Source: a virus. From it: a stretch of DNA of 64,000 nt. A program made the translations under genes and the position numbers. This document shows positions 41,689 to 51,110 of this stretch, one piece after another (position 1 is the stretch's first letter; each line of letters opens with the position of its first letter). The notes under the pieces are model-generated. The model was not told where the DNA came from. It searched no databases and saw nothing but the letters and a program-made list of their open reading frames with translations. The stretch covers positions 54,466 to 118,465 of IMG/VR virus record IMGVR_UViG_3300014050_000004; one strand, given 5' to 3'.

Positions 41689-42138
41689 TCAGGAATTAAA
41701 CGGCTTTGGTACATTGACTCTCCTTGAATAGTGGCTGAATCTTTCCATCACAGGGGGACTCTCACCATTGGTAGAAGGAAGCTCCGGTGTCTCAAAACTC
41801 TGGTTTACCTCTGGTTCTTCAACAATTCTGAGTGGAGCGTCTTGCCAAAGGATGTGTTCGTACAGCTCTTCTCCCTCTGGTGACAAGGATGTTATGACAC
41901 TGTTTACAAGTTCAATGAATTCTCGGTTCGAAGATCTCCTTCCCTTGTTGTACAATTGTTTGTGAAACATTGCCGTAATCTCGTTGGCAATTTCCGTGGA
42001 CTTTTTGCTCAGTATCTTCTTTTCTCTCAGGAGTTTGTACACTGAGTGCCAAAGGGAATTAGCCTTCTTCTTTTCCTCTGAGAGTTCATCCTGGAGCTTT
42101 TTGATTTGTGCTTCAAGAGCGGTTATATTGTCAATCAT
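41689..42138 (-). CDS. Coiled-coil hypothetical protein
   Basis: A 149-residue protein: strong coiled coil in residues 1-60 (ITALEAQIKKLQDELSEEKKK), then a Ser-rich, likely disordered C-terminus (ERFSHYSRRVNVPKPF). Overlaps the P-loop kinase by 8 bases. Stop lies just before the repeat of the next promoter. Function unknown. Confidence 0.6.
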   Translation of the reverse strand: MIDNITALEAQIKKLQDELSEEKKKANSLWHSVYKLLREKKILSKKSTEIANEITAMFHKQLYNKGRRSSNREFIELVNSVITSLSPEGEELYEHILWQDAPLRIVEEPEVNQSFETPELPSTNGESPPVMERFSHYSRRVNVPKPFNS

Positions 42139-42619
42139 TGATTAACAAGGTGTGGTCGTACTTTTTGCAGAGGTTACTGATTCGCGTGCTCATGCCCTTC
42201 CTCCAGGATTCATTCTGTTCTTCACCCCTCTTAGCATGTCTCTTGTTCAGTTCCTCCTCCCCAACAGATACGCATACGAGCTCCATGTCCGCATTTTCAA
42301 ACATGGCATCTAGATTAGGTTGATTGCTGAATCGTTCCCCCTCCCCCAGAATAGTCCAACCCTCAAGATCTTCCTTGTTGGCTGACAGCCATTCTCTAAA
42401 CTTGGGGCCAACCCCTTTGGACATGCGGTCTGTACCGTCGAAAGTGCTTCCGTCATACCTTCCCAAGACAATCACCTTCTGCTGAGGGAATCTATGGTAG
42501 ATAACAAGACCCTCTTTGACTTCTTCATCTTGTTCCTTCTTTCTTAGGTCCTCAATGAAACTCTTCATTAAGGTGGTTTTTCCAGTCCCCGGTTGGCCGA
42601 TGTAGTAGCGTATCTTCAT
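42131..42619 (-). CDS. P-loop NTPase, predicted base-modification DNA kinase
   Basis: A 162-residue protein. Walker A IGQPGTGKTTLM (7-18), then VLGRYDGSTFDGTDRMSKG and ILGEGERFSNQPN. I associate that GTDRxS-xGExER arrangement with predicted phage 5-hydroxymethyluridine DNA kinases in base hypermodification pathways. No experiment supports this here. It sits with a glycosyltransferase, a predicted pyrophosphorylase and dioxygenases downstream and upstream. Its own -35/-10 promoter lies 22 bases from its ATG. Confidence 0.6.
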   Translation of the reverse strand: MKIRYYIGQPGTGKTTLMKSFIEDLRKKEQDEEVKEGLVIYHRFPQQKVIVLGRYDGSTFDGTDRMSKGVGPKFREWLSANKEDLEGWTILGEGERFSNQPNLDAMFENADMELVCVSVGEEELNKRHAKRGEEQNESWRKGMSTRISNLCKKYDHTLLIND

Positions 42620-42640
42620 TTTGGTTTGAGGTTTGATTGT

Positions 42641-42669
42641 ATTATAGAGTGAGAGAACTATGATGTAAA
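42641..42669 (-). promoter_or_regulatory. Sigma-70-type promoter for the P-loop kinase
   Basis: TTTACA (42664-42669), 17 bases, TATAAT (42641-42646); no inverted repeat upstream, unlike the palindrome class. ATG is at 42619 with no clear Shine-Dalgarno sequence. Confidence 0.75.
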
Positions 42670-42678
42670 CTTATCTCT

Positions 42679-43725
42679 TCAACTTCCTATGACCTCTTGG
42701 GCCAAGAGCAGTAAAGAATTACAAGAGTTCTTCCATGTCCAACTTTCACTCTTGACCAAAGCTCTTTTCACCTTGGCTTTTGTTTCTTCCTTGTTCTCCA
42801 CACACTTTAGGATTTCCTTTGAAAGGTCTTTGTAAGAGCTGGAATCTGCTATGTAACCACAATCTCCAACTATCTCTGGAAGGGAAGCGCACGGAGCTAC
42901 AACTACTGGAACTCCGAGAGACATGGCTTCAATAACAGGCAATCCCATGCCTTCATACTTGCTTGGGCAGACGTACATCTCAGACTGTGTGATCAATTCA
43001 CACAGCTCTTGATCTGACAAAGAATCATAGAACATAACTCTCTCTTCAAGTTTCATCCCTCTGATTGCTTCCAGCTCTTTAACAGAAGGGGGTTTGAACG
43101 AAGATACCCTAAGGTCCAAGTCATGGTCTTTCAAGGTCTTCAAAAGAGCAGTGAAGTTTTTACTCTTTTCATACCGGTTACCCCAATACACCATGTAGGG
43201 CTTAGGAGGACTCTTCGTGGTAAACTTAGTAAGTTTGCCGCCGGAGAATTTGCTGCCGGAGTACAGACATTTTGTGTTCGCTCCCGGAATTATCTCCAAC
43301 ACTTGTTTTTGTATGAAAGGAGTTGTACAAGCAAAGGTATTTGTTAACTTCGAGAGACCTCTTAGGGTCAGGCTGATGGAAAGGCTGTATTCTTCCCTTC
43401 CGGGGATGTCCACGTCATGTACCACAGGTAGCACTTTTTCACAGACAGGAAACATTGTAAAGTGGTTCCCGATTTGAATGTCAAACGGACCTAGATCTTC
43501 GTAAACTTTCTTAAAGTTGGAGGTTTCAATCTTACCGTTGAAACGAGTGTACCCACCCTCGGGTGGGTTCCATTTATGAAACTTTGGCCTCCTTAACAGT
43601 AGATCGTCCACAACCACGCACACTTCATGGTTTTCCCTTCTTAGGTGGGATATCATTTGTCTATCCCATTCATTGATTCCGCATCCACCAAATCCCACAT
43701 TTCCGGAATCCCACAAAATTCTCAT
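42679..43725 (-). CDS. Glycosyltransferase, GT-B fold (group 1/GT4-like)
   Basis: A 348-residue protein with a GT-B N-terminus (MRILWDSGNVGFGGCG) and the C-terminal donor motif SKYEGMGLPVIEAMSLGVPVVV, containing the Glu-x7-Glu pair. It overlaps its upstream neighbour by ATGA. In this neighbourhood the likely acceptor is hydroxymethylated or amino-modified DNA base, but a cell-surface acceptor cannot be excluded. Confidence 0.8.
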   Translation of the reverse strand: MRILWDSGNVGFGGCGINEWDRQMISHLRRENHEVCVVVDDLLLRRPKFHKWNPPEGGYTRFNGKIETSNFKKVYEDLGPFDIQIGNHFTMFPVCEKVLPVVHDVDIPGREEYSLSISLTLRGLSKLTNTFACTTPFIQKQVLEIIPGANTKCLYSGSKFSGGKLTKFTTKSPPKPYMVYWGNRYEKSKNFTALLKTLKDHDLDLRVSSFKPPSVKELEAIRGMKLEERVMFYDSLSDQELCELITQSEMYVCPSKYEGMGLPVIEAMSLGVPVVVAPCASLPEIVGDCGYIADSSSYKDLSKEILKCVENKEETKAKVKRALVKSESWTWKNSCNSLLLLAQEVIGS

Positions 43726-44015
43726 AGTACAATCTCCTCAACTTTTCTCTTGAGAATCCTCTCCCAGTACGACTTAGTCTTAGGCATAACTTCTATTGTA
43801 GGTATACTATGAACCCATTCAGAATATTTTATCAACTCTTTGGACAAATGAGTTACAATGACCACAGTGTTTAATAATAGTAAGTGTTCAGTCTCAAATG
43901 GGTAGTCCCAAATGAGTTGATATTCTGGCAATACCAAAGAAATCGTCTGTGCTTGGGCTATCTCTTTGAGGAAGATGCTATTTGTCCCCGATCTGAAGAC
44001 GGTGCAGTGTTTCAT
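43722..44015 (-). CDS. Hypothetical protein of the modification cassette
   Basis: A 97-residue protein overlapping both neighbours by ATGA. It has a LLLLNTVVIVTHLSKELIKY segment, beta-alpha-like, and no Cys or His cluster. No family recognised. Packing supports a co-functional small gene. Confidence 0.6.
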   Translation of the reverse strand: MKHCTVFRSGTNSIFLKEIAQAQTISLVLPEYQLIWDYPFETEHLLLLNTVVIVTHLSKELIKYSEWVHSIPTIEVMPKTKSYWERILKRKVEEIVL

Positions 44016-45028
44016 AATTCTTCAGAAAAGTGGTGGAATGACCCCGTCTCAAGAAAGTGGCTCATCTTTTGATTGTCTATTTTCGCTCCTCGAGGGGCCC
44101 AGATGTCCCCCACAACCTCTTTTCTCATTTGGTGCAACACCTCCCAGTCAATCCCATGCCACCCTGAACTCTCTGCTTTCGCAATTTGCTCTGACATTCT
44201 GTCCAAGTAAAAACCGCAGTATCTGCCCTTCTTCACTCGAAAAAGTTTTTTGTATGAGCACCCCACGGTTTCTAGAGAAAAAGCGTCAAACTGACTGGAA
44301 TGTCCGGACCATCGACCTTTCGCCTCCTTGATAAGATCCTGAGAAAAACCTTCTAACCAATCGTACTCATCTGCGGTTAATCTCTGGTTAACCCAGTCAT
44401 CTTTTCCGGCGGCGAAGCACAAACCGTTTCTATGAGATTTGGACCCAGAGTAGTCGCTGAGCATCAGGGTTCTGGGCTCTATGGGAACACCGCAAGTGTG
44501 CTTATAAGTCTGAAGCACAAACCAGGCCGAGTACCTTCCCATCTTCCACCAGTCATCTATAATAACACGCCACAATCGGTCAAAGTTCTCTTCGGGAGAG
44601 TCTTGGCACAAGTCCGAAAATCTCTCGTGTTGAGTCCTCTCCCCAACAAAGTCATGGTAGCTTGAGTACATAGAGGCTATGTGTCCTTTGCTCCATTTTG
44701 TGTCTGTATCGTAGTAGATACGTGAGTAGTTGTCATTATTCCACTGCTCAAATCTCTCCACGGAAGCCAGCTCTTGGTCCGGGAATTCGTTCTTCATAAT
44801 GAACGCCGTGGGCAAATTATAAGTGTGGTAGAGCCATGCAAAAAAGTAACGTTCTTCAATGTTGTATTCGTACCTTTCATTGAGATAGTTAATGCCCCAG
44901 AGAGGACAATCAACATCCCCGATCTCTGTACAGGCTGCCCACCATTGCAAGAAACCTTCTCTTCTGTTTCGCGGCAGTCTGAAATCCAGGGAGGGAGCAT
45001 TCGTTTTTGCAGACAGTTTAGTCATCAT
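44012..45028 (-). CDS. Predicted alpha-glutamyl/putrescinyl thymine pyrophosphorylase-like (amino-acid:DNA transferase) protein
   Basis: A 338-residue protein. FLQWWAACTEIGDVDCPLWG, ERYEYNIEERYFFAWLYHTYN, a PTAFIMKNEFPD segment, a Trp/Asp middle (IIDDWWKMGRYSAWF) and SHRNGLCFAAGKDDW fit the pattern I remember for clade 2 base-hypermodification enzymes (ADDT-like) of phages. These are predicted to swap an activated base for an amino group. No experimental evidence here. Upstream, its start lies across from the oppositely oriented phosphatase. Confidence 0.55.
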   Translation of the reverse strand: MMTKLSAKTNAPSLDFRLPRNRREGFLQWWAACTEIGDVDCPLWGINYLNERYEYNIEERYFFAWLYHTYNLPTAFIMKNEFPDQELASVERFEQWNNDNYSRIYYDTDTKWSKGHIASMYSSYHDFVGERTQHERFSDLCQDSPEENFDRLWRVIIDDWWKMGRYSAWFVLQTYKHTCGVPIEPRTLMLSDYSGSKSHRNGLCFAAGKDDWVNQRLTADEYDWLEGFSQDLIKEAKGRWSGHSSQFDAFSLETVGCSYKKLFRVKKGRYCGFYLDRMSEQIAKAESSGWHGIDWEVLHQMRKEVVGDIWAPRGAKIDNQKMSHFLETGSFHHFSEEL

Positions 45029-45067
45029 GTGAACTTCTCACAGCTTTTGAACAAGGTTACAGGATTC

Positions 45068-45074
45068 GGGTAAA
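45068..45074 (+). promoter_or_regulatory. GGGTAAA element for the plus-strand phosphatase
   Basis: Plus-strand GGGTAAA, 30 bases before GTG 45105 and 3 bases before an in-frame ATG 45078, in the divergent gap with the transferase gene. Confidence 0.4.
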
Positions 45075-45104
45075 GGTATGGATACAGGTCAAGAAGAAGC
45101 TCTT

Positions 45105-45512
45105 GTGAAGGTACTTTTTATATGCACTGGTTGCATTAATCGAAGCGCGACAGCCCACGTTATTCTTGCCACCCTTGGCAAAGACAAGCATGAAGTTCAA
45201 AGTTGCGGAACAGGCAAAGTTGCACCCTTAGGGTGCCGCATACCCCGGAAGATGAGGGATGTCTTGACAGAAATGGGATACGACCCCGCTCATCACAGAT
45301 CCCAGGGCATCAATTTGGAACTTTTGTCTTGGGCAGACAAAATTATCTGCATGGGGAATGTCCATGAGAAGTTCATTAAGAAACACTTTCCTGAGATGCA
45401 CAATAAAGTTGAAAATTGGAGGATCAAGGATCCACACTTTGCCAAGGGAGATGCGTTGCATAGGACGGTCGCTAAAGAAATTGAGCAGTGCGTGAAGACT
45501 CAATTTCTCTGA
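45105..45512 (+). CDS. Low-molecular-weight protein-tyrosine-phosphatase-like enzyme
   Basis: A 135-residue protein if started at GTG 45105, which has AAGAAGAAG upstream and begins at the first strand (VKVLFICTGCINRS). An ATG at 45078 adds 9 residues. The signature CxxxxxRS (CTGCINRS, residues 7-14) and the DPH acid near the C-terminus match LMW-PTP or arsenate reductase. It runs on the plus strand into the convergent amidoligase gene and overlaps it by 41 bases. It could act on a modified base or a phosphorylated intermediate; the role is open. Confidence 0.75.
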   Translation: MKVLFICTGCINRSATAHVILATLGKDKHEVQSCGTGKVAPLGCRIPRKMRDVLTEMGYDPAHHRSQGINLELLSWADKIICMGNVHEKFIKKHFPEMHNKVENWRIKDPHFAKGDALHRTVAKEIEQCVKTQFL

Positions 45513-46428
45513 TGGCTGCTACAGTTTCCTCTGAAGAGCAGGTATCTATGTCTACTAACTCCCTCAGTTTACAGATTCGTTCCTCCACAACTTTTCTGCT
45601 GTTTTTGTCAAAGTTGGTGTAGGAGTACCCTTTTTCCATGGAGTCGTTGTAAGGAGCGAAGGGAGGAAAGTCACAGTCACTCGAGGACAAGAGTTCCGAA
45701 ACCGGAGCATTTTCGAGTGCCATCGGGATGAAGTTTTTGACCCAAATGAAGCAAGATAGGAGCTTCCGGGGGGATCGAGTGCAAGTGAAATGTCGAAACT
45801 CTATGGTATCAGTTTCTTTTATTTGAAGCAGGTTAATGCCGGCCCTGGTTGTTAATCCCCACGCAGGCTCACCTGATTGGGAAGTTGGAGCATGGGCTGC
45901 CAGGAATTCTTGGACTGTTTCCGCTTTGAGGGCTGCTTGAACCCTGTTCTTAGGCACTTTGTATTGATGTGAAACCTTCCTTCGATTGAACCGTTTACGA
46001 GCCCCTCTCAGCTCCTCGGGGGAAAAGTCTCCTAGGCTTGGTACGGGGATTGGTTCAATAACCTCGTAGATTTCACTCTGGTGAGTGTCAATGTATTTTA
46101 GCAACCTTTTCAAAGATGCAAGGTCTTCGCTCAACCCTGGCACTCTTACATGCAAGTGGAGGTTTGTTCTGTGATTTACAGAAGCTTCAGGATGCATAAC
46201 CAGCAGCTTTTCAAACATGAGGATTTGTTCCTCAAGAGATTCCGAGGGTCTAGAGTTTATCTCTCCTCCCCTCTTATAAATCAAACCCTTAGGATCATTG
46301 GCTATTCCGGTACTTGAGACAACAGAGTAGTCTTTTCTGTTCCAAGTCAGACCGTCTGGCAAATCTGTTAGCCACACATCTCCAAACTCGTACTCTGCTC
46401 CAAAGGTTGAGTGTTCAAAATTCAGCAA
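45472..46428 (-). CDS. Putative amidoligase (COOH-NH2 ligase, GCS-like fold)
   Basis: A 318-residue protein. FGAEYEFGD near the N-terminus, then GGEINSRPSES and NLHLHVRVPG, then IEFRHF, match the metal-binding pattern of the glutamine synthetase/GCS-like amidoligase family (Iyer and Aravind). Such enzymes form amide bonds between a carboxylate and an amine. It starts by 7-base overlap with the glutamine amidotransferase gene, so the two likely act together. The substrate is unknown, plausibly a base-attached amino acid. Confidence 0.65.
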   Translation of the reverse strand: MLNFEHSTFGAEYEFGDVWLTDLPDGLTWNRKDYSVVSSTGIANDPKGLIYKRGGEINSRPSESLEEQILMFEKLLVMHPEASVNHRTNLHLHVRVPGLSEDLASLKRLLKYIDTHQSEIYEVIEPIPVPSLGDFSPEELRGARKRFNRRKVSHQYKVPKNRVQAALKAETVQEFLAAHAPTSQSGEPAWGLTTRAGINLLQIKETDTIEFRHFTCTRSPRKLLSCFIWVKNFIPMALENAPVSELLSSSDCDFPPFAPYNDSMEKGYSYTNFDKNSRKVVEERICKLRELVDIDTCSSEETVAAIREIESSRTAQFL

Positions 46429-47084
46429 GGTATCAGCTCCTTAATTTGGGTTAGAATTACTTCAGAGTCTTCGCTATAAATCACACCTGGTACACATCTC
46501 TCAGGGTTCCCTAAGCCTGATCGTATAGCTATGTCTTTGGTTGAGGTTAGAAAGAACCCATTCTTGACATTGACTTTCCATAGCGGCCTCTTACCGTTTC
46601 TGTAGAATCTGATTGAACCGTTCTTCCTAAGCTCCAGGACAGCTATAGAAGAATCCTTGAATTTCATCATTGGTTCTTCCCCAGCCTCCAAAGCTCTGAG
46701 TATGAGCTCGGAATCATTCTTCCCCGTTAAAGGGTAGCCATACTTAGACCAAGAGTCTGGCGAGTTTTGGTCAACTACACCGTTATGGACTATAGAGATC
46801 TTCTCTCCAAACAGAGGTTGGTTGTACTGCAAGTCAGAGGTTGAGTAGCGGCAATGGCCAATCAAGGATAAGGATTGCCCAGAAACACAGCTTTCAAGGT
46901 CGAAATCTGAAAGAAAAGTCTCAGCACTCTCTGGCTTTTTAATTGTTGTTATGGCATTGTCCTTGAAGAAGGAAACACCGAATGCATGTTTACCTCTTAT
47001 TTGTGACTCAAGCGCAATCCTCCTAAGGATTATCAGATCTTGTTCAGAGGTTTCCTCAAGTTGACAGCCGAAGATGGCACACAT
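46422..47084 (-). CDS. Class II glutamine amidotransferase
   Basis: A 220-residue Ntn-hydrolase. ATG 47084 gives MCAIFGC, so removal of Met exposes Cys as N-terminal nucleophile; an extended in-frame reading upstream would bury it and is rejected. GHCRYSTSD, IVHNG and GKNDSE follow, as in PurF, GlmS or AsnB glutaminase domains. No synthetase domain is fused. It would supply ammonia to the adjacent amidoligase or ATP-grasp gene. Confidence 0.85.
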   Translation of the reverse strand: MCAIFGCQLEETSEQDLIILRRIALESQIRGKHAFGVSFFKDNAITTIKKPESAETFLSDFDLESCVSGQSLSLIGHCRYSTSDLQYNQPLFGEKISIVHNGVVDQNSPDSWSKYGYPLTGKNDSELILRALEAGEEPMMKFKDSSIAVLELRKNGSIRFYRNGKRPLWKVNVKNGFFLTSTKDIAIRSGLGNPERCVPGVIYSEDSEVILTQIKELIPC

Positions 47085-47132
47085 ATTGTAATGAGGGTGT
47101 TGGTTGGTTCGTTCATTCAAAACTCTGGAACT

Positions 47133-47160
47133 ATTATAGCCCGGAGAGTGGGCGGGTAAC
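47133..47160 (-). promoter_or_regulatory. Possible promoter for the amidotransferase
   Basis: TATAAT (47133-47138), 16 bases, GTTACC (47155-47160) within GGGTTACCC. Leader to ATG 47084 about 40 bases. Lies inside the end of the upstream gene's region. Confidence 0.55.
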
Positions 47161-47163
47161 CCA

Positions 47164-47454
47164 CTACCAACTGATGTCCAAGATTTGAGAGCCCATAACA
47201 TTATCCAAGGTAACTACCGTGTAACCTTTCTCTTCTAAGATGTGGGATATGCCGTTGCTGTAATGAGAGCCAAGGTTTCTTGGCATTGTAAAGATCAACC
47301 TGTTTTTGCAAGCCGAAGTGCAATTCAAAACTTCTTGGAATATCACCTTGAGAAGTCTTCTGGCCTCGAAAGAACCTCCAAATGTGTCTCGAGCTTTGAT
47401 AGTAAGTCTTCTGGCTTCCTGTACACTTATCTCGTTTTCCATCGGCCTTGTCAC
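47164..47454 (-). CDS. Hypothetical protein of the amidoligase cluster
   Basis: A 96-residue protein. GTG 47454 overlaps the ATP-grasp stop by GTGA; ATG 47442 is an alternative. KNRLIFTMPRNLGSHYSNG is followed by a Ile/Val-rich end. No family. Well packed in the operon. Confidence 0.55.
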   Translation of the reverse strand: MTRPMENEISVQEARRLTIKARDTFGGSFEARRLLKVIFQEVLNCTSACKNRLIFTMPRNLGSHYSNGISHILEEKGYTVVTLDNVMGSQILDISW

Positions 47455-48194
47455 ACTAAGTTACAAAATAAAATCTGATACCATCTGCTTACAAGCATCT
47501 CTGAGTATTCCAGGCTTGTTGGCGGATTAGATTGACTGTCGGTATTGTTGTAGAACCCGAGAGACCAAGCATCGTTGAGTTCAATTAGAGAGTACTTTTG
47601 AATGTCGGGCCTCCAACCGATGTCAATCGAATAGGCATTGGGTCCCAGCTCTTGATGGAAAGCGTTGGCGATTCTTGCAATCATCTCGAAATCAGGGTCT
47701 GGATTTGTCACCTCCAGATCGTCGTACCTGGACCACCCTAAAACCTTAGGCTCCTGAATAGTGTCTTGTATGTAAAATCGAAACTCAGACTCAAACTTTG
47801 TTGGTTCCGATATCCACACTCTTGTGCTTGGGTCTATGCTCTTGACAAGGTCCTTTTTGAGCGAACCTGTGAACAGTTTAACTGTGTCTCGGGGTTTGAC
47901 AAATTCCTCTTCGGAGGCTTCTGCTAAAACACCCTGCCGAATGTTTCGGCTTAGGTAAGGCTCTACAAAATCAGGAAATCCTAACGGTTCTGGAAGTTCT
48001 AGACCGAAAACTCTGCAGTATTCTCTCACAAACTCTACTGTTCCCACGGGAGTGGTAGAGCACTTGTATTTGTTCACATCGAGATTTGGCAAGCTCTCCA
48101 AAGGCAGAGACAGGGTTTGGTAAGGAGAGAGAACGCAAGCAATTTTTTCGGACCCCGAAAAGTTGCCACTTTGAAGTAGAAATTTGTCAATCAT
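47451..48194 (-). CDS. ATP-grasp ligase, R2K-like clade
   Basis: A 247-residue protein. SEFRFYIQDTIQEPKVLGW with following R/K positions, then GPNAYSIDIGW and LIELNDAWSLGFY, resemble R2K-clade ATP-grasp enzymes of phages, which are predicted peptide or amino-acid ligases. It overlaps the upstream dioxygenase by 8 bases. In this cluster it may attach an amino acid to a DNA-base derivative together with the amidoligase. Confidence 0.6.
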   Translation of the reverse strand: MIDKFLLQSGNFSGSEKIACVLSPYQTLSLPLESLPNLDVNKYKCSTTPVGTVEFVREYCRVFGLELPEPLGFPDFVEPYLSRNIRQGVLAEASEEEFVKPRDTVKLFTGSLKKDLVKSIDPSTRVWISEPTKFESEFRFYIQDTIQEPKVLGWSRYDDLEVTNPDPDFEMIARIANAFHQELGPNAYSIDIGWRPDIQKYSLIELNDAWSLGFYNNTDSQSNPPTSLEYSEMLVSRWYQILFCNLV

Positions 48195-49623
48195 ACAGCA
48201 CCCATTCCGGCGATGGAGCGAACTTGTGAAGCTTCACTTCTCCTGTGACAGTGTTTTTGTAAGGAGAGGAAAGTTGCCAGTTCGAGTTTGAACACCGGGT
48301 CAGTCCCCTCTCAGCTTTGAAAGCCTTCCACTCATCAGATAGCCACATCTGAGGCCAAACCCCTCTCCAATCCGAGTGCTCCTTTCCCTTTTCTCTTAGA
48401 TTTTGAGAGGAGTGTCTGATGAAGTCTCGACGACAAGTTTCGCATTCCAGGTCATCGAGGTATACCATGTTTTCCCTGGAGTAGAAAACCATCGAAACCC
48501 TTTCAGCATCCTCAGAGTCTTTGACCATTGGGGTGTTCCCATGAATCAAATTCTGGGTGTCCGCAATGATGAAGTCCCCGTCTCTCACGTCAAAGGCGAG
48601 TTTCAACTCAGGAAATACTAAGTAGTGCCCTGTGTAGGAACCTTGAGAGATGACTGTGAGAACAGCCATGGCCTCTTTGAGGTTGTTTTTGTCTACGTGG
48701 TAAGCGGTTTGAAAGTTGAAATTGAGGGTTATGCTTGTGAAAGCTGTGTCAAATAAGCTATATAAGGGTTCCTTGACTTTGCTAATTACTGATCGTACCT
48801 TGCTCCAGGTCTCAGGAAACAAGCTCTTAAACCCTTGGTCAACTGCAATGTAAACGCTCTTAAACTTTTCGAAATCTTCAAAGTTTCTTTGAGTCGTCCC
48901 GCTCAATCTCCCATAGGGAAACCTTGCTCCCCTGTCTATAGCTCCAAGCACATTGCTGTAACAATGATTGAAGTTCAGCTGAGAGCTGATGAAATTTGAG
49001 TGAACTTTGCTGGCTTCTTCTTTTTTGCTGAGGGATTTGGACCAGACTTCTTCCAGCCAAGGTTCAAACCAACTCCACAAAACAGTTCTTTTTTCTTCCT
49101 CCCCAACAAAAGCACCACTCTTGGCTCTCTTGTCTATCTCTGCCAAAGCATTCTTGATATGGGGAAATTCTTTTTTGATGTGCTTGGACTTAAGGGTTTT
49201 CACAGTCAGCTCATCAGAGCTGGACAAAACTTGCCTTGCACTTTCAAGGTTAGAGATTGACCCTGAGATCGCTCCTTTGAAGAAATCCACTTGACCGCGA
49301 GTGAGCCTGGCTTCTCGGCGAGTGGTGAGCTCAGTACCTGCAACGACCCCTCTCTGGGTCCCATAAACCTCACGGGAAGCCCTCCTAAAGAAGGGCCAGG
49401 CTTCCCCCGAAGAGCCCTCTGAGAGGGCTGGTATGAGGCTCCTACGGAACGATAGGACCTTGGCCTCAGCCACATAGACGTCGCAATCGTCATTGATCAC
49501 TCTGTCAAAGTCCCCCTCTTGAGGGAATTTGCCGATGTAGAGGCTTCTGGGACAATCGTGGAGAGAGTCCAGTTTTACAACTTCAGGACTCTCCCTACTC
49601 ATAAGGTCTTCAGAAACCGTCAT
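48187..49623 (-). CDS. TET/JBP-like Fe(II)/2-oxoglutarate dioxygenase, copy 1
   Basis: A 478-residue protein from ATG 49623, with GGGAGGAAAG 6 bases upstream and an ATGA overlap. YHVDKNN carries H309 and D311, followed by HYLVFPELKLAFDVRDGDF, H361 (LIHGN) and R375 (AERVSM). These are the metal and 2-oxoglutarate ligands of TET/JBP enzymes. A Cys pair (CETCRRDF) follows. It resembles its neighbour throughout. Predicted to hydroxylate a 5-methyl or thymine methyl group in DNA. Confidence 0.75.
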   Translation of the reverse strand: MTVSEDLMSRESPEVVKLDSLHDCPRSLYIGKFPQEGDFDRVINDDCDVYVAEAKVLSFRRSLIPALSEGSSGEAWPFFRRASREVYGTQRGVVAGTELTTRREARLTRGQVDFFKGAISGSISNLESARQVLSSSDELTVKTLKSKHIKKEFPHIKNALAEIDKRAKSGAFVGEEEKRTVLWSWFEPWLEEVWSKSLSKKEEASKVHSNFISSQLNFNHCYSNVLGAIDRGARFPYGRLSGTTQRNFEDFEKFKSVYIAVDQGFKSLFPETWSKVRSVISKVKEPLYSLFDTAFTSITLNFNFQTAYHVDKNNLKEAMAVLTVISQGSYTGHYLVFPELKLAFDVRDGDFIIADTQNLIHGNTPMVKDSEDAERVSMVFYSRENMVYLDDLECETCRRDFIRHSSQNLREKGKEHSDWRGVWPQMWLSDEWKAFKAERGLTRCSNSNWQLSSPYKNTVTGEVKLHKFAPSPEWVLYD

Positions 49624-51110
49624 TTGGTGCTTTCCTCCCACACCTCCAAGTGCTCCCAGTCTTCCCCAGGTGAGTGAGTTGATAGCTTAACCTCTCCTGA
49701 GGTTTTGTTTCGGAAAGGTTTGGTACCCCAGTAGTTACCGTTGCCGCAGTGGGTCATTCCTTTTTGTTCGCGATAGTCAAGCCATTCCTGGGAGGTCCAT
49801 TGGCCACTCCACACTCCGTTCCAAGTGCTATGGCCAGTGCCCTTTTCTTGCAGGTTTTTACCACAGTATTGCATAAAGTCTTTCCTGCACTCTTCGCAGT
49901 CCAAACCTTCAAGCAGAGTCATTCTCTCTCGAGAATAGAAAACCAGGGACACTCTTTCAGCATCAGGGGATTTGGGCTTCATTGCCGTATTGCCATGGAT
50001 CAACCCTTGATTGTCTCCGGCCAGGAAATCCCCGTCTCGAAGATCAAAAGCGCACCTTAGCTCAGGGAACACGAGGTAATGTCCCTCATAGTCTCCTTGC
50101 GTCATTGCTGAAAGAACAGCCACGCCACCCTCGCAATTATTAGCGTCATAGTGCATTGCGCACCGGAAGTTCCAATTAAGTGTCAGAGCTGTGAATACGG
50201 TCCCAAACAAGTTGTAGTGTGGATCTTGCACTTTTGAGAACTTCTCATGAAGTACAGTCCACCTATCACCCAAAGTTTCCAGCAAAACATCGGAAGCAGT
50301 TTGATACACATCTCTGTGTCTCACAAACTCTTCATAGTTTTTCAAAGTTGTGCCTGTGAGCCTACCATAAGGGTTTCTAGCTCCCCTGTCAAAAGCACCG
50401 AGAACATTGCTGTAACACTTGTTGGATCGCAGTTGTTTGCTGATGTACCTGTTGTCGGCCCACTTAGCCTCCTTAACCCTGTCCTCAGCAGAGTCCCATT
50501 TCTCTTTCAGCCAAAGCTCAAACCACTCTCCAAGAATCTTTCCTTTCTCTTTCTTCAGCTCTTCTTTTCTGTCCTCGGGGGTCTTCTTCTTGCGGATTTC
50601 AGCCTCAAGGGGTGCGAGCCTTTCTGAGATGCTCGGGAAGTCTTTCTTAATTTCGGTGACACGGATGATGTATTTGCTCGGGTCAGGGGACATCCCAACG
50701 ATATCCATGGCTTCTTCCACAGAGGAAACATTGTCGGCAAAAGCCTTTTTGAAGAAGTTAAGAATGCCGTTTGACACTCGGCCTTCGAGATCTGTGGTCA
50801 ATTCTTTGCCCGCTACGAGACCCCTTTGGTCCGAGTAAAGGTCTCTTGATGCCCAACGCAGATACTCCCAAGTTTTGGGATCTCCCTTTGCACCTTCCTT
50901 GAGTTTAGGGAAAACGGACTTCCGGAAGGCTAGAACCTTCACCCCTGCAACATAGACGTCACAGTCTTCTTGTACAAGAGTGTCGTAATGGGTTTCATCC
51001 GCAAAGTACCCGATCAATTCCTTCGGGTCGCAGGGGTACAGAGCGTCAAGCTCAATTCTCTTAGCTTGAGGTCTGGACCTGAGCTCTTCAATTACTTGTG
51101 TTTGTGTCAT
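49620..51110 (-). CDS. TET/JBP-like Fe(II)/2-oxoglutarate dioxygenase, copy 2
   Basis: A 496-residue paralogue of copy 1. MHYDANN gives H320 and D322, HYLVFPELRCAFDLRDGDF, H372 (LIHGN) and R386 (AERVSL), then CEECRKDF. The N-terminal region has a CDVYVAGVKVLAFRKS block shared with copy 1. The pair could have different site or base specificity. Both would act on phage DNA bases in the cytoplasm, using oxygen and 2-oxoglutarate. Confidence 0.75.
   Translation of the reverse strand: MTQTQVIEELRSRPQAKRIELDALYPCDPKELIGYFADETHYDTLVQEDCDVYVAGVKVLAFRKSVFPKLKEGAKGDPKTWEYLRWASRDLYSDQRGLVAGKELTTDLEGRVSNGILNFFKKAFADNVSSVEEAMDIVGMSPDPSKYIIRVTEIKKDFPSISERLAPLEAEIRKKKTPEDRKEELKKEKGKILGEWFELWLKEKWDSAEDRVKEAKWADNRYISKQLRSNKCYSNVLGAFDRGARNPYGRLTGTTLKNYEEFVRHRDVYQTASDVLLETLGDRWTVLHEKFSKVQDPHYNLFGTVFTALTLNWNFRCAMHYDANNCEGGVAVLSAMTQGDYEGHYLVFPELRCAFDLRDGDFLAGDNQGLIHGNTAMKPKSPDAERVSLVFYSRERMTLLEGLDCEECRKDFMQYCGKNLQEKGTGHSTWNGVWSGQWTSQEWLDYREQKGMTHCGNGNYWGTKPFRNKTSGEVKLSTHSPGEDWEHLEVWEESTK

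What the first reader, a model, noticed from the sequence alone, without database searches (positions are those of the whole stretch)
42131..51110. Predicted DNA base hypermodification cassette combining oxidation, phosphorylation, amino-transfer, glycosylation and amide ligation
One compact set of genes encodes a P-loop kinase of the base-kinase type, a GT-B glycosyltransferase, a protein resembling alpha-glutamyl/putrescinyl thymine pyrophosphorylase, a low-MW phosphatase, an amidoligase, a class II amidotransferase, an R2K-type ATP-grasp and two TET/JBP-like dioxygenases. Known hypermodification uses oxidation to hydroxymethyl-pyrimidine, phosphorylation and displacement by an amine. The extra amidoligase/ATP-grasp/GATase set would extend this to a peptide- or amide-bearing base. 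The combination is unusual as far as I know; individual calls are by motif only.
Basis: partly seen in the sequence, partly recalled or inferred. Interest (0 to 1): 0.9.

Follow-up and report, generated by a model that had tools for sequence, protein, structure and literature searches.

The report
Phage DNA-base modification operon with amidoligase
A cyanophage-like virus carries a compact set of enzyme genes, conserved in order in over a hundred other uncultured viruses, that very probably oxidises, phosphorylates, aminates and then caps bases in its own DNA (most likely thymine), and two of its conserved enzymes, a glutaminase-type amidotransferase and an amide ligase, are not part of any experimentally worked-out thymine pathway that I know of.

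Summary
They form one tightly packed minus-strand cluster, with the phosphatase on the opposite strand. The core is not a one-off. Four genes (TET/JBP dioxygenase, class II glutamine amidotransferase or GAT, ADDT transferase, P-loop kinase) recur in the same order in 96 IMG/VR loci (44 non-redundant lineages) and again in 86 separately sampled ones. The divergent GS-fold amidoligase is in 35 of the 44. The glycosyltransferase and R2K ATP-grasp are lineage-specific extras. No C5-cytosine methyltransferase or dUMP hydroxymethylase was found in 22 contigs carrying the cassette, so thymine oxidised in situ is the likeliest substrate. GAT tracks this ADDT clade and never occurs with the flavin oxidase of other operons. 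The amidoligase comes and goes, and in other phages it sits beside different amine-making routes. I therefore favour: T to 5-hydroxymethyl-U, to phosphate, to 5-aminomethyl-U using glutamine-derived ammonia, to an amide on that amine made by the amidoligase. DNA modification is very likely; the exact chemistry is inferred. It is a new variant of a known kind.

The parts
49620..51110 (-). TET/JBP dioxygenase A (496 aa)
   Evidence: Pfam Tet_JBP 1.4e-16; H320, D322, H372 invariant in 90/90 relatives; 57% identical to S-CBWM1 gp8
48187..49641 (-). TET/JBP dioxygenase B (484 aa), tandem paralogue of A (45% identity)
   Evidence: Pfam Tet_JBP 2.7e-18; alignment A5
47451..48194 (-). R2K-clade ATP-grasp ligase (247 aa), lineage-specific
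   Evidence: R2K_2 1.2e-20, R2K_3 1e-19; in this operon only in the window lineage and the L011/L014/L129 lineage
47164..47454 (-). small ORF of 96 aa, no family
   Evidence: seen only in the window and its near-identical contig L009
46422..47084 (-). stand-alone class II (Ntn) glutamine amidotransferase, 220 aa, starting MCAIFG (longer ORF begins 47201)
   Evidence: GATase_6 1.1e-7; profile matches the PurF glutaminase domain, 2e-5; catalytic Cys/RYST/HNG/ND conserved
45472..46428 (-). amidoligase, GS/GCS-fold COOH-NH2 ligase (318 aa, TTG start)
   Evidence: PHROG amidoligase 0.007; relatives hit PF12224; AlphaFold pLDDT 96.9 with glutathione synthetase, glutamine synthetase, GCL, YbdK as top folds
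45078..45512 (+). low-MW phosphatase-fold protein (144 aa), CTGCINRS P-loop, antisense in this lineage
   Evidence: LMWPc 6.2e-16; best PDB match arginine phosphatase YwlE 1.3e-8; same-strand in the same slot in other lineages
44012..45028 (-). ADDT, amino acid:DNA transferase family (338 aa)
   Evidence: PF18724 2.1e-18; all-helical AlphaFold model pLDDT 91, no PDB fold match
43722..44015 (-). small ORF of 97 aa, no family
   Evidence: only in the window and L009
42679..43725 (-). GT-B (GT4) glycosyltransferase (348 aa), lineage-specific
   Evidence: Glycos_transf_1 9.5e-22, GT4-conflict 1e-6; other glycosyltransferases (GT-B or TAGT) occupy other operons
42131..42619 (-). P-loop kinase, Ploopntkinase3 (162 aa)
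   Evidence: PF18751 2.5e-9; Walker A GQPGTGKT; last core gene of the operon in all complete loci of this type

Best explanation
This is a post-replicative DNA-base hypermodification operon of a cyanophage-like virus. The most likely pathway has four steps. (1) The TET/JBP dioxygenases hydroxylate the 5-methyl group of thymine in DNA, giving 5-hydroxymethyl-U. (2) The P-loop kinase phosphorylates the hydroxymethyl. (3) ADDT displaces the phosphate with ammonia released from glutamine by the class II amidotransferase (or transfers glutamine nitrogen in another way), giving a 5-aminomethyl-pyrimidine. (4) The GS-fold amidoligase, working with the LMW-phosphatase-fold partner, caps the amine with a carboxylic or amino acid through an ATP-dependent amide bond. 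In this lineage an R2K ATP-grasp may add a further residue and a GT4 enzyme a sugar. Shown here: gene identities, intact catalytic motifs, conserved operon, co-occurrence rules, no detected C5-MTase or dUMP hydroxymethylase. Inferred: every chemical step, the base, and the role of the phosphatase-fold protein.
For: Operon: TET-GAT-[GT]-[amidoligase]-(LMWP or GNAT)-ADDT-kinase in 96 complete loci, 44/44 non-redundant lineages for the four core genes, and 86 loci from separate GAT and TET scans. Reciprocal link: 52/52 GAT-selected loci with enough downstream DNA carry ADDT and 56/56 with enough upstream DNA carry TET. Base: 0/22 records have a C5-MTase PF00145 and 0/22 a ThyA-type dUMP hydroxymethylase PF00303, while 12/22 have ThyX; the same search does find the C5-MTase in the TET phages Melnitz and L155. 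GAT feeds ADDT rather than the amidoligase: GAT never occurs with the flavin DAO enzyme (0 of 127 loci having either; again none); GAT persists in lineages without amidoligase (9/44); on the ADDT tree the nitrogen-source label changes only twice, while amidoligase changes at least 7 times and GNAT/LMWP at least 12; TET+DAO operons (L155, L162) and intact GAT-less TET operons (L298, L309) use ADDTs outside this clade. Amidoligase acylates an amine: it also sits with ADDTb+DAO+hydroxymethylase+5hmdU kinase, with ADDTb+PLP enzyme+radical SAM (L150), and beside QueF, which makes an aminomethyl group, in cultured Vibrio phage 2.275.O. Precedents: 5-aminomethyl- and 5-aminoethyl-U are natural phage bases (PMC11550810); an ATP-dependent amide ligase, CmoY, acts on a DNA base (PMC12783734); dPreQ1 occurs in phage DNA (PMC6884629).
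Against: No biochemistry or mass spectrometry. Characterised ADDTs are reported (from memory, Lee et al. 2022, not held) to install amino acids, not ammonia; ammonia use here is inferred from co-occurrence. Cytosine cannot be excluded if a host methyltransferase supplies 5mC or if a C5-MTase is too divergent to detect. The phosphatase-fold protein has no clear role in this scheme. Loci were chosen by similarity to the cassette, and half of the first set by amidoligase, so frequencies are biased. Flanks were limited to 7-10 kb.
Confidence: 0.5

Rival explanations
1. Amino-acid route: ADDT installs a whole amino acid on phosphomethyl-U, as in M6/ViI-type phages, and the amidoligase with the glutamine amidotransferase then amidates its carboxylate (or adds a peptide), making an amide- or peptide-bearing thymine. 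This is closest to the first reader's wording.
For: ADDT is the amino acid:DNA transferase family. Amidoligase and class II GATase are paired in other phage modules (tf, Kovu). GATase plus GS-fold ligase is a natural glutamine-dependent amidation pair.
Against: GAT is kept in 9/44 lineages that lack the amidoligase, and the amidoligase occurs without GAT in DAO- and PLP-type operons. The amidoligase neighbours amine-making enzymes in several unrelated pathways.
Confidence: 0.27
2. The substrate is cytosine: 5mC made by a host or undetected methyltransferase is oxidised by TET and hypermodified the same way.
For: Cultured phage Melnitz pairs an HhaI-like C5-MTase, a TET and this kinase family. 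L155 has TET plus a C5-MTase.
Against: No C5-MTase in any of 22 records of this operon type, including contigs of 118-247 kb. ADDT and the non-TET relatives of this operon belong to the 5hmdU (thymine) pathway.
Confidence: 0.15
3. Amidotransferase, amidoligase and ATP-grasp form a separate phiEco32/LUZ24-like module that modifies cell wall or host proteins and merely sits next to the base-modification genes.
For: Such modules exist in phages (tf, Kovu, UFV-P2, PMC3890496) and were proposed to act on the cell wall (cited in PMC10580990). R2K enzymes were proposed to modify host proteins (PMC4431377, PMC7824862).
Against: These genes lie inside, not beside, the TET-ADDT-kinase operon in >100 contigs. 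GAT and this ADDT clade were never found apart in intact loci. No gamma-glutamyl cyclotransferase or second COOH-NH2 ligase was seen among the operon genes. tblastn with the amidoligase does not reach the tf, LUZ24 or Kovu amidoligases at E 0.01.
Confidence: 0.06

Closest known systems
5hmdU-derived thymidine hypermodification of phages M6, ViI and phiW-14 (dUMP hydroxymethylase, 5hmdU DNA kinase, ADDT, then tailoring enzymes)
   Same: Kinase then ADDT substitution on a 5-hydroxymethyl pyrimidine, then lineage-specific tailoring enzymes such as GNAT
   Different: Here the hydroxymethyl is predicted to come from TET/JBP oxidation in DNA, not from dUMP hydroxymethylase (0/22). The kinase is Ploopntkinase3, not HMUDK. 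GAT is present instead of flavin, PLP or radical-SAM enzymes. An amidoligase is added.
Phage TET systems coupled to C5-MTase and glycosyltransferases (TAGT)
   Same: TET/JBP dioxygenase; GT or TAGT in some of the operons
   Different: No C5-MTase; kinase, ADDT and GAT are added
CmoA/CmoX/CmoY of Synechococcus phage S-B43 (PMC12783734)
   Same: ATP-dependent amide ligation on a DNA base in a cyanophage
   Different: CmoY is an asparagine-synthetase homologue acting on 5-carboxymethyl-C; here a GS-fold ligase is predicted to act on an amine
Gat-QueC / QueF deazaguanine modification (phage 9g, Dp-1; PMC6884629)
   Same: Class II GATase working on a nucleobase for phage DNA; aminomethyl base (dPreQ1)
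   Different: Purine exchange pathway by DpdA, unrelated core enzymes
phiEco32/LUZ24-like amidoligase-GATase-ATP-grasp-GGCT module
   Same: Amidoligase, class II GATase and an ATP-grasp together
   Different: No GGCT here, divergent amidoligase, embedded in a TET-ADDT-kinase operon

Membership tests
5hmdU thymidine hypermodification pathway (M6/ViI type) | ADDT family transferase | tested here: met
   PF18724 2.1e-18
5hmdU thymidine hypermodification pathway (M6/ViI type) | dUMP hydroxymethylase (ThyA family) as source of 5hmdU | tested here: not met
   PF00303 absent from 22 records; the window record has ThyX only
5hmdU thymidine hypermodification pathway (M6/ViI type) | 5hmdU DNA kinase (HMUDK) | tested here: not met
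   the window kinase is Ploopntkinase3 (2.5e-9); HMUDK_HMUD1 only 0.058
5hmdU thymidine hypermodification pathway (M6/ViI type) | hypermodified T in virion DNA | not testable with these tools
   needs LC-MS
TET/JBP dioxygenases | double-stranded beta-helix domain with HxD...H iron motif | tested here: met
   PF12851 in both; HxD and H in 90/90
C5-MTase-coupled phage TET systems | cytosine C5-methyltransferase in the same phage | tested here: not met
   PF00145 0/22, with positive controls Melnitz and L155; most records may be fragments
class II glutamine amidotransferase | N-terminal catalytic Cys with RYS, HNG and ND motifs | tested here: met
Amidoligase_2 (PF12224) | GS/GCS-like COOH-NH2 ligase fold and motifs | tested here: inconclusive
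   the window protein misses Pfam; some relatives hit at 1e-3 to 1e-4; fold matches are all of this superfamily or related amide ligases but with E above 1e-3
R2K ATP-grasp | R2K RAGNYA/ATP-grasp domain | tested here: met
   R2K_2 1.2e-20; invariant K and E residues
phiEco32/LUZ24 amidoligase module | GGCT plus COOH-NH2 ligase plus amidoligase plus GATase | tested here: not met
   no GGCT or second ligase among the operon genes identified; amidoligase not alignable by tblastn to those phages; compare

The most novel reading that the evidence does not exclude
A glutamine-fed route to aminated thymine in DNA (GAT donates ammonia to an ADDT), whose amine is then capped by a glutamine-synthetase-fold ligase acting on DNA. 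The capping ligase is shared between at least four unrelated phage base-amination pathways (three pyrimidine, one deazaguanine).
Probability: 0.42. Interest if true: 0.87.

Novelty: new variant of a known kind. Interest (0 to 1): 0.74.

Why it matters
If true, it adds a TET/JBP-started branch to thymine hypermodification, a second way to make an aminated base, and a class of DNA-acting amide ligase. The operon is common in environmental viruses, so much such phage DNA may carry amide-capped bases that affect restriction, CRISPR and sequencing. The co-occurrence rules (GAT with this ADDT clade, GNAT or LMWP but never both, amidoligase always with LMWP) turn it into a set of single-enzyme assays. 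It also gives a thymine-specific prediction for a phage TET.

Tried and rejected
- Genome-contig scan with the ADDT alignment found no relatives, so no prokaryote genome or prophage copy is known from that collection.
- Megablast of the cassette against cultured phages: no match.
- Fold search of the ADDT model: no PDB match, so its fold is not informative.
- Amidoligase sequence profile against PDB sequences: only noise; fold search used instead.
- Scan for relatives of the Vibrio 2.275.O amidoligase in IMG/VR: none, so the QueF neighbourhood rests on a single phage.
- Iyer 2013, Lee 2018, Lee 2022 and Burke 2021 are not in the held library. I could not check whether any of them already noted the amidoligase/GAT neighbours.
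- Rejected: ordinary cell-wall/peptide module only; surface-polysaccharide cluster (no polysaccharide genes apart from one GT).
- Considered and left open: role of the LMW phosphatase-fold protein. Its closest PDB relative is an arginine phosphatase, but that does not assign a substrate.
Full report
Observation. The window is bases 54466-118465 of an IMG/VR virus record of 118,465 bp. By its terminase it is a distant relative of Synechococcus phage S-CBWM1 (58% identity). The genes 51110-42131 form one packed minus-strand run with mostly overlapping stop and start codons; only the LMW-phosphatase gene lies on the other strand. Pfam confirms TET/JBP twice, R2K ATP-grasp, class II GATase, LMWPc, ADDT, GT4 and P-loop kinase 3. 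The amidoligase is recognised through relatives and fold; the fold matches are consistent in kind but weak in E-value. Catalytic motifs are intact.

The operon is conserved. Using alignments of ADDT and amidoligase as bait, IMG/VR holds at least 438 and 425 relatives. In 96 loci with a complete TET-to-kinase span the order is always TET - GAT - [GT-B or TAGT] - [amidoligase] - {LMWP or GNAT} - ADDT - [small gene] - kinase, give or take a few inserted genes. After removing near-duplicates there are 44 lineages: TET, GAT, ADDT and kinase 44/44 (TET, ADDT and kinase by definition of the set; GAT not), amidoligase 35/44, LMWP 22/44, GNAT 22/44. LMWP and GNAT never occur together and one is always present; the amidoligase is always there with LMWP and in 13/22 with GNAT. 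Separate scans started from GAT and from TET repeat this: 52/52 GAT loci have ADDT, 56/56 have TET, and GNAT-or-LMWP holds in 86/86 complete loci. R2K and two TETs mark the window lineage and its sister contigs; the GT4 gene and the two small ORFs are found only in the window and its near-identical contig. Other glycosyltransferases, including TET-associated TAGT PF20691, occur in other operons.

Which base. 22 whole records with the operon (or, for three of them, its core without a TET in the flank), up to 247 kb, contain no C5-cytosine methyltransferase and no ThyA-type dUMP hydroxymethylase; 12 contain ThyX. The same search detects the methyltransferase in TET phages that have one (Melnitz, L155). 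Thymine oxidised in DNA, JBP-style, is the simplest reading. The window phage also has RNR, dCMP deaminase, MazG and ThyX, in keeping with its own thymidylate supply. The records may be fragments, so absence is evidence, not proof.

What GAT does. If GAT only served the amidoligase, it should vanish with it. It does not: 9/44 lineages have GAT and GNAT but no amidoligase. On the ADDT tree the amidoligase is gained or lost at least 7 times and the LMWP/GNAT slot switches at least 12 times, while the nitrogen-source label changes only twice. GAT never occurs with the DAO flavoenzyme, which accompanies the other ADDT clade. Two TET operons with DAO, and the intact TET operons without GAT, use ADDTs outside the clade. 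The best reading is that GAT supplies nitrogen to the ADDT step. This is inference from co-occurrence.

What the amidoligase does. Besides this operon it is found with (a) hydroxymethylase + 5hmdU kinase + ADDTb + DAO, (b) ADDTb + PLP enzyme + radical SAM (L150), and (c) QueF, QueC and a GATase in Vibrio phage 2.275.O, where it is a clear homologue (183 bits). QueF makes an aminomethyl base, and dPreQ1 is known in phage DNA (PMC6884629). That routes (a) and (b) end in an amine rests on my knowledge of Lee et al. 2018/2022, which are not held; 5-aminomethyl- and 5-aminoethyl-uracil as natural phage bases are cited in PMC11550810. The common factor is a primary amine on a base, so an amine-acylating ligase is favoured. 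CmoY shows that amide ligation on a DNA base is real, with a different fold and chemistry (PMC12783734).

What is not explained. The LMW-phosphatase-fold protein keeps its CX5R loop and is closest in the PDB to arginine phosphatase YwlE. It swaps perfectly with GNAT, but I cannot name its substrate. Why the window lineage has two TETs, an R2K ligase and a GT4 is open.

Limits. Relatives were chosen by similarity (best 80 per scan), so frequencies are not abundances; half the first set was chosen by amidoligase. Flanks were 7-10 kb. No biochemical evidence exists here, and key primary papers were not available, so priority of the observation cannot be claimed. I rate DNA-base modification itself at about 0.9, thymine at about 0.75, GAT-to-ADDT at about 0.55 and amine acylation by the amidoligase at about 0.6.

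Noticed in passing
L112:10139-11614: A tryptophan-halogenase-family flavoprotein (PF04820, 7.9e-93) sits between ADDT and the kinase in one such operon (family of 2 loci), hinting at further tailoring.
   Followed up: no
44 lineages; window 45078-45512: LMWP and GNAT are perfect either/or alternatives in the slot before ADDT (22 vs 22, no both, no neither). In the window lineage LMWP keeps its slot but is inverted to the opposite strand.
   Followed up: partly
L167:7872-11485 (Vibrio phage 2.275.O): Amidoligase homologue next to QueF and QueC in a cultured Vibrio phage: predicted acylated dPreQ1.
   Followed up: partly
L002 (positions 2804, 4065, 4668, 5296, 7905, 8761, 10280, 11184), L004:13431: A repeated motif of the form FTRCxRPDGSxYGTxGKCRKG occurs at nine places in the genome, mostly near the start of genes in one block; a CIKGKSC motif recurs too. 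Possibly a shared targeting or processing tag.
   Followed up: no
L168:4010-8090 (Methylophilales phage Melnitz): Cultured phage with HhaI-like C5-MTase, TET and the same kinase family almost in a row: a likely cytosine version of the pathway.
   Followed up: partly
L169:642-2155; L170:1406-3152: Microbacterium phage Terij (TET next to this kinase family) and M. smegmatis phage AlanGrant (PLP enzyme near a relative of the kinase) are annotated as oxidoreductase, adenylate kinase or terminase small subunit; PHROG 800 also labels this kinase 'terminase small subunit'.
   Followed up: partly
L061:11017-11436 and 44 relatives: A conserved 139-aa protein of no known family lies between ADDT and the kinase in 45 loci.
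   Followed up: no
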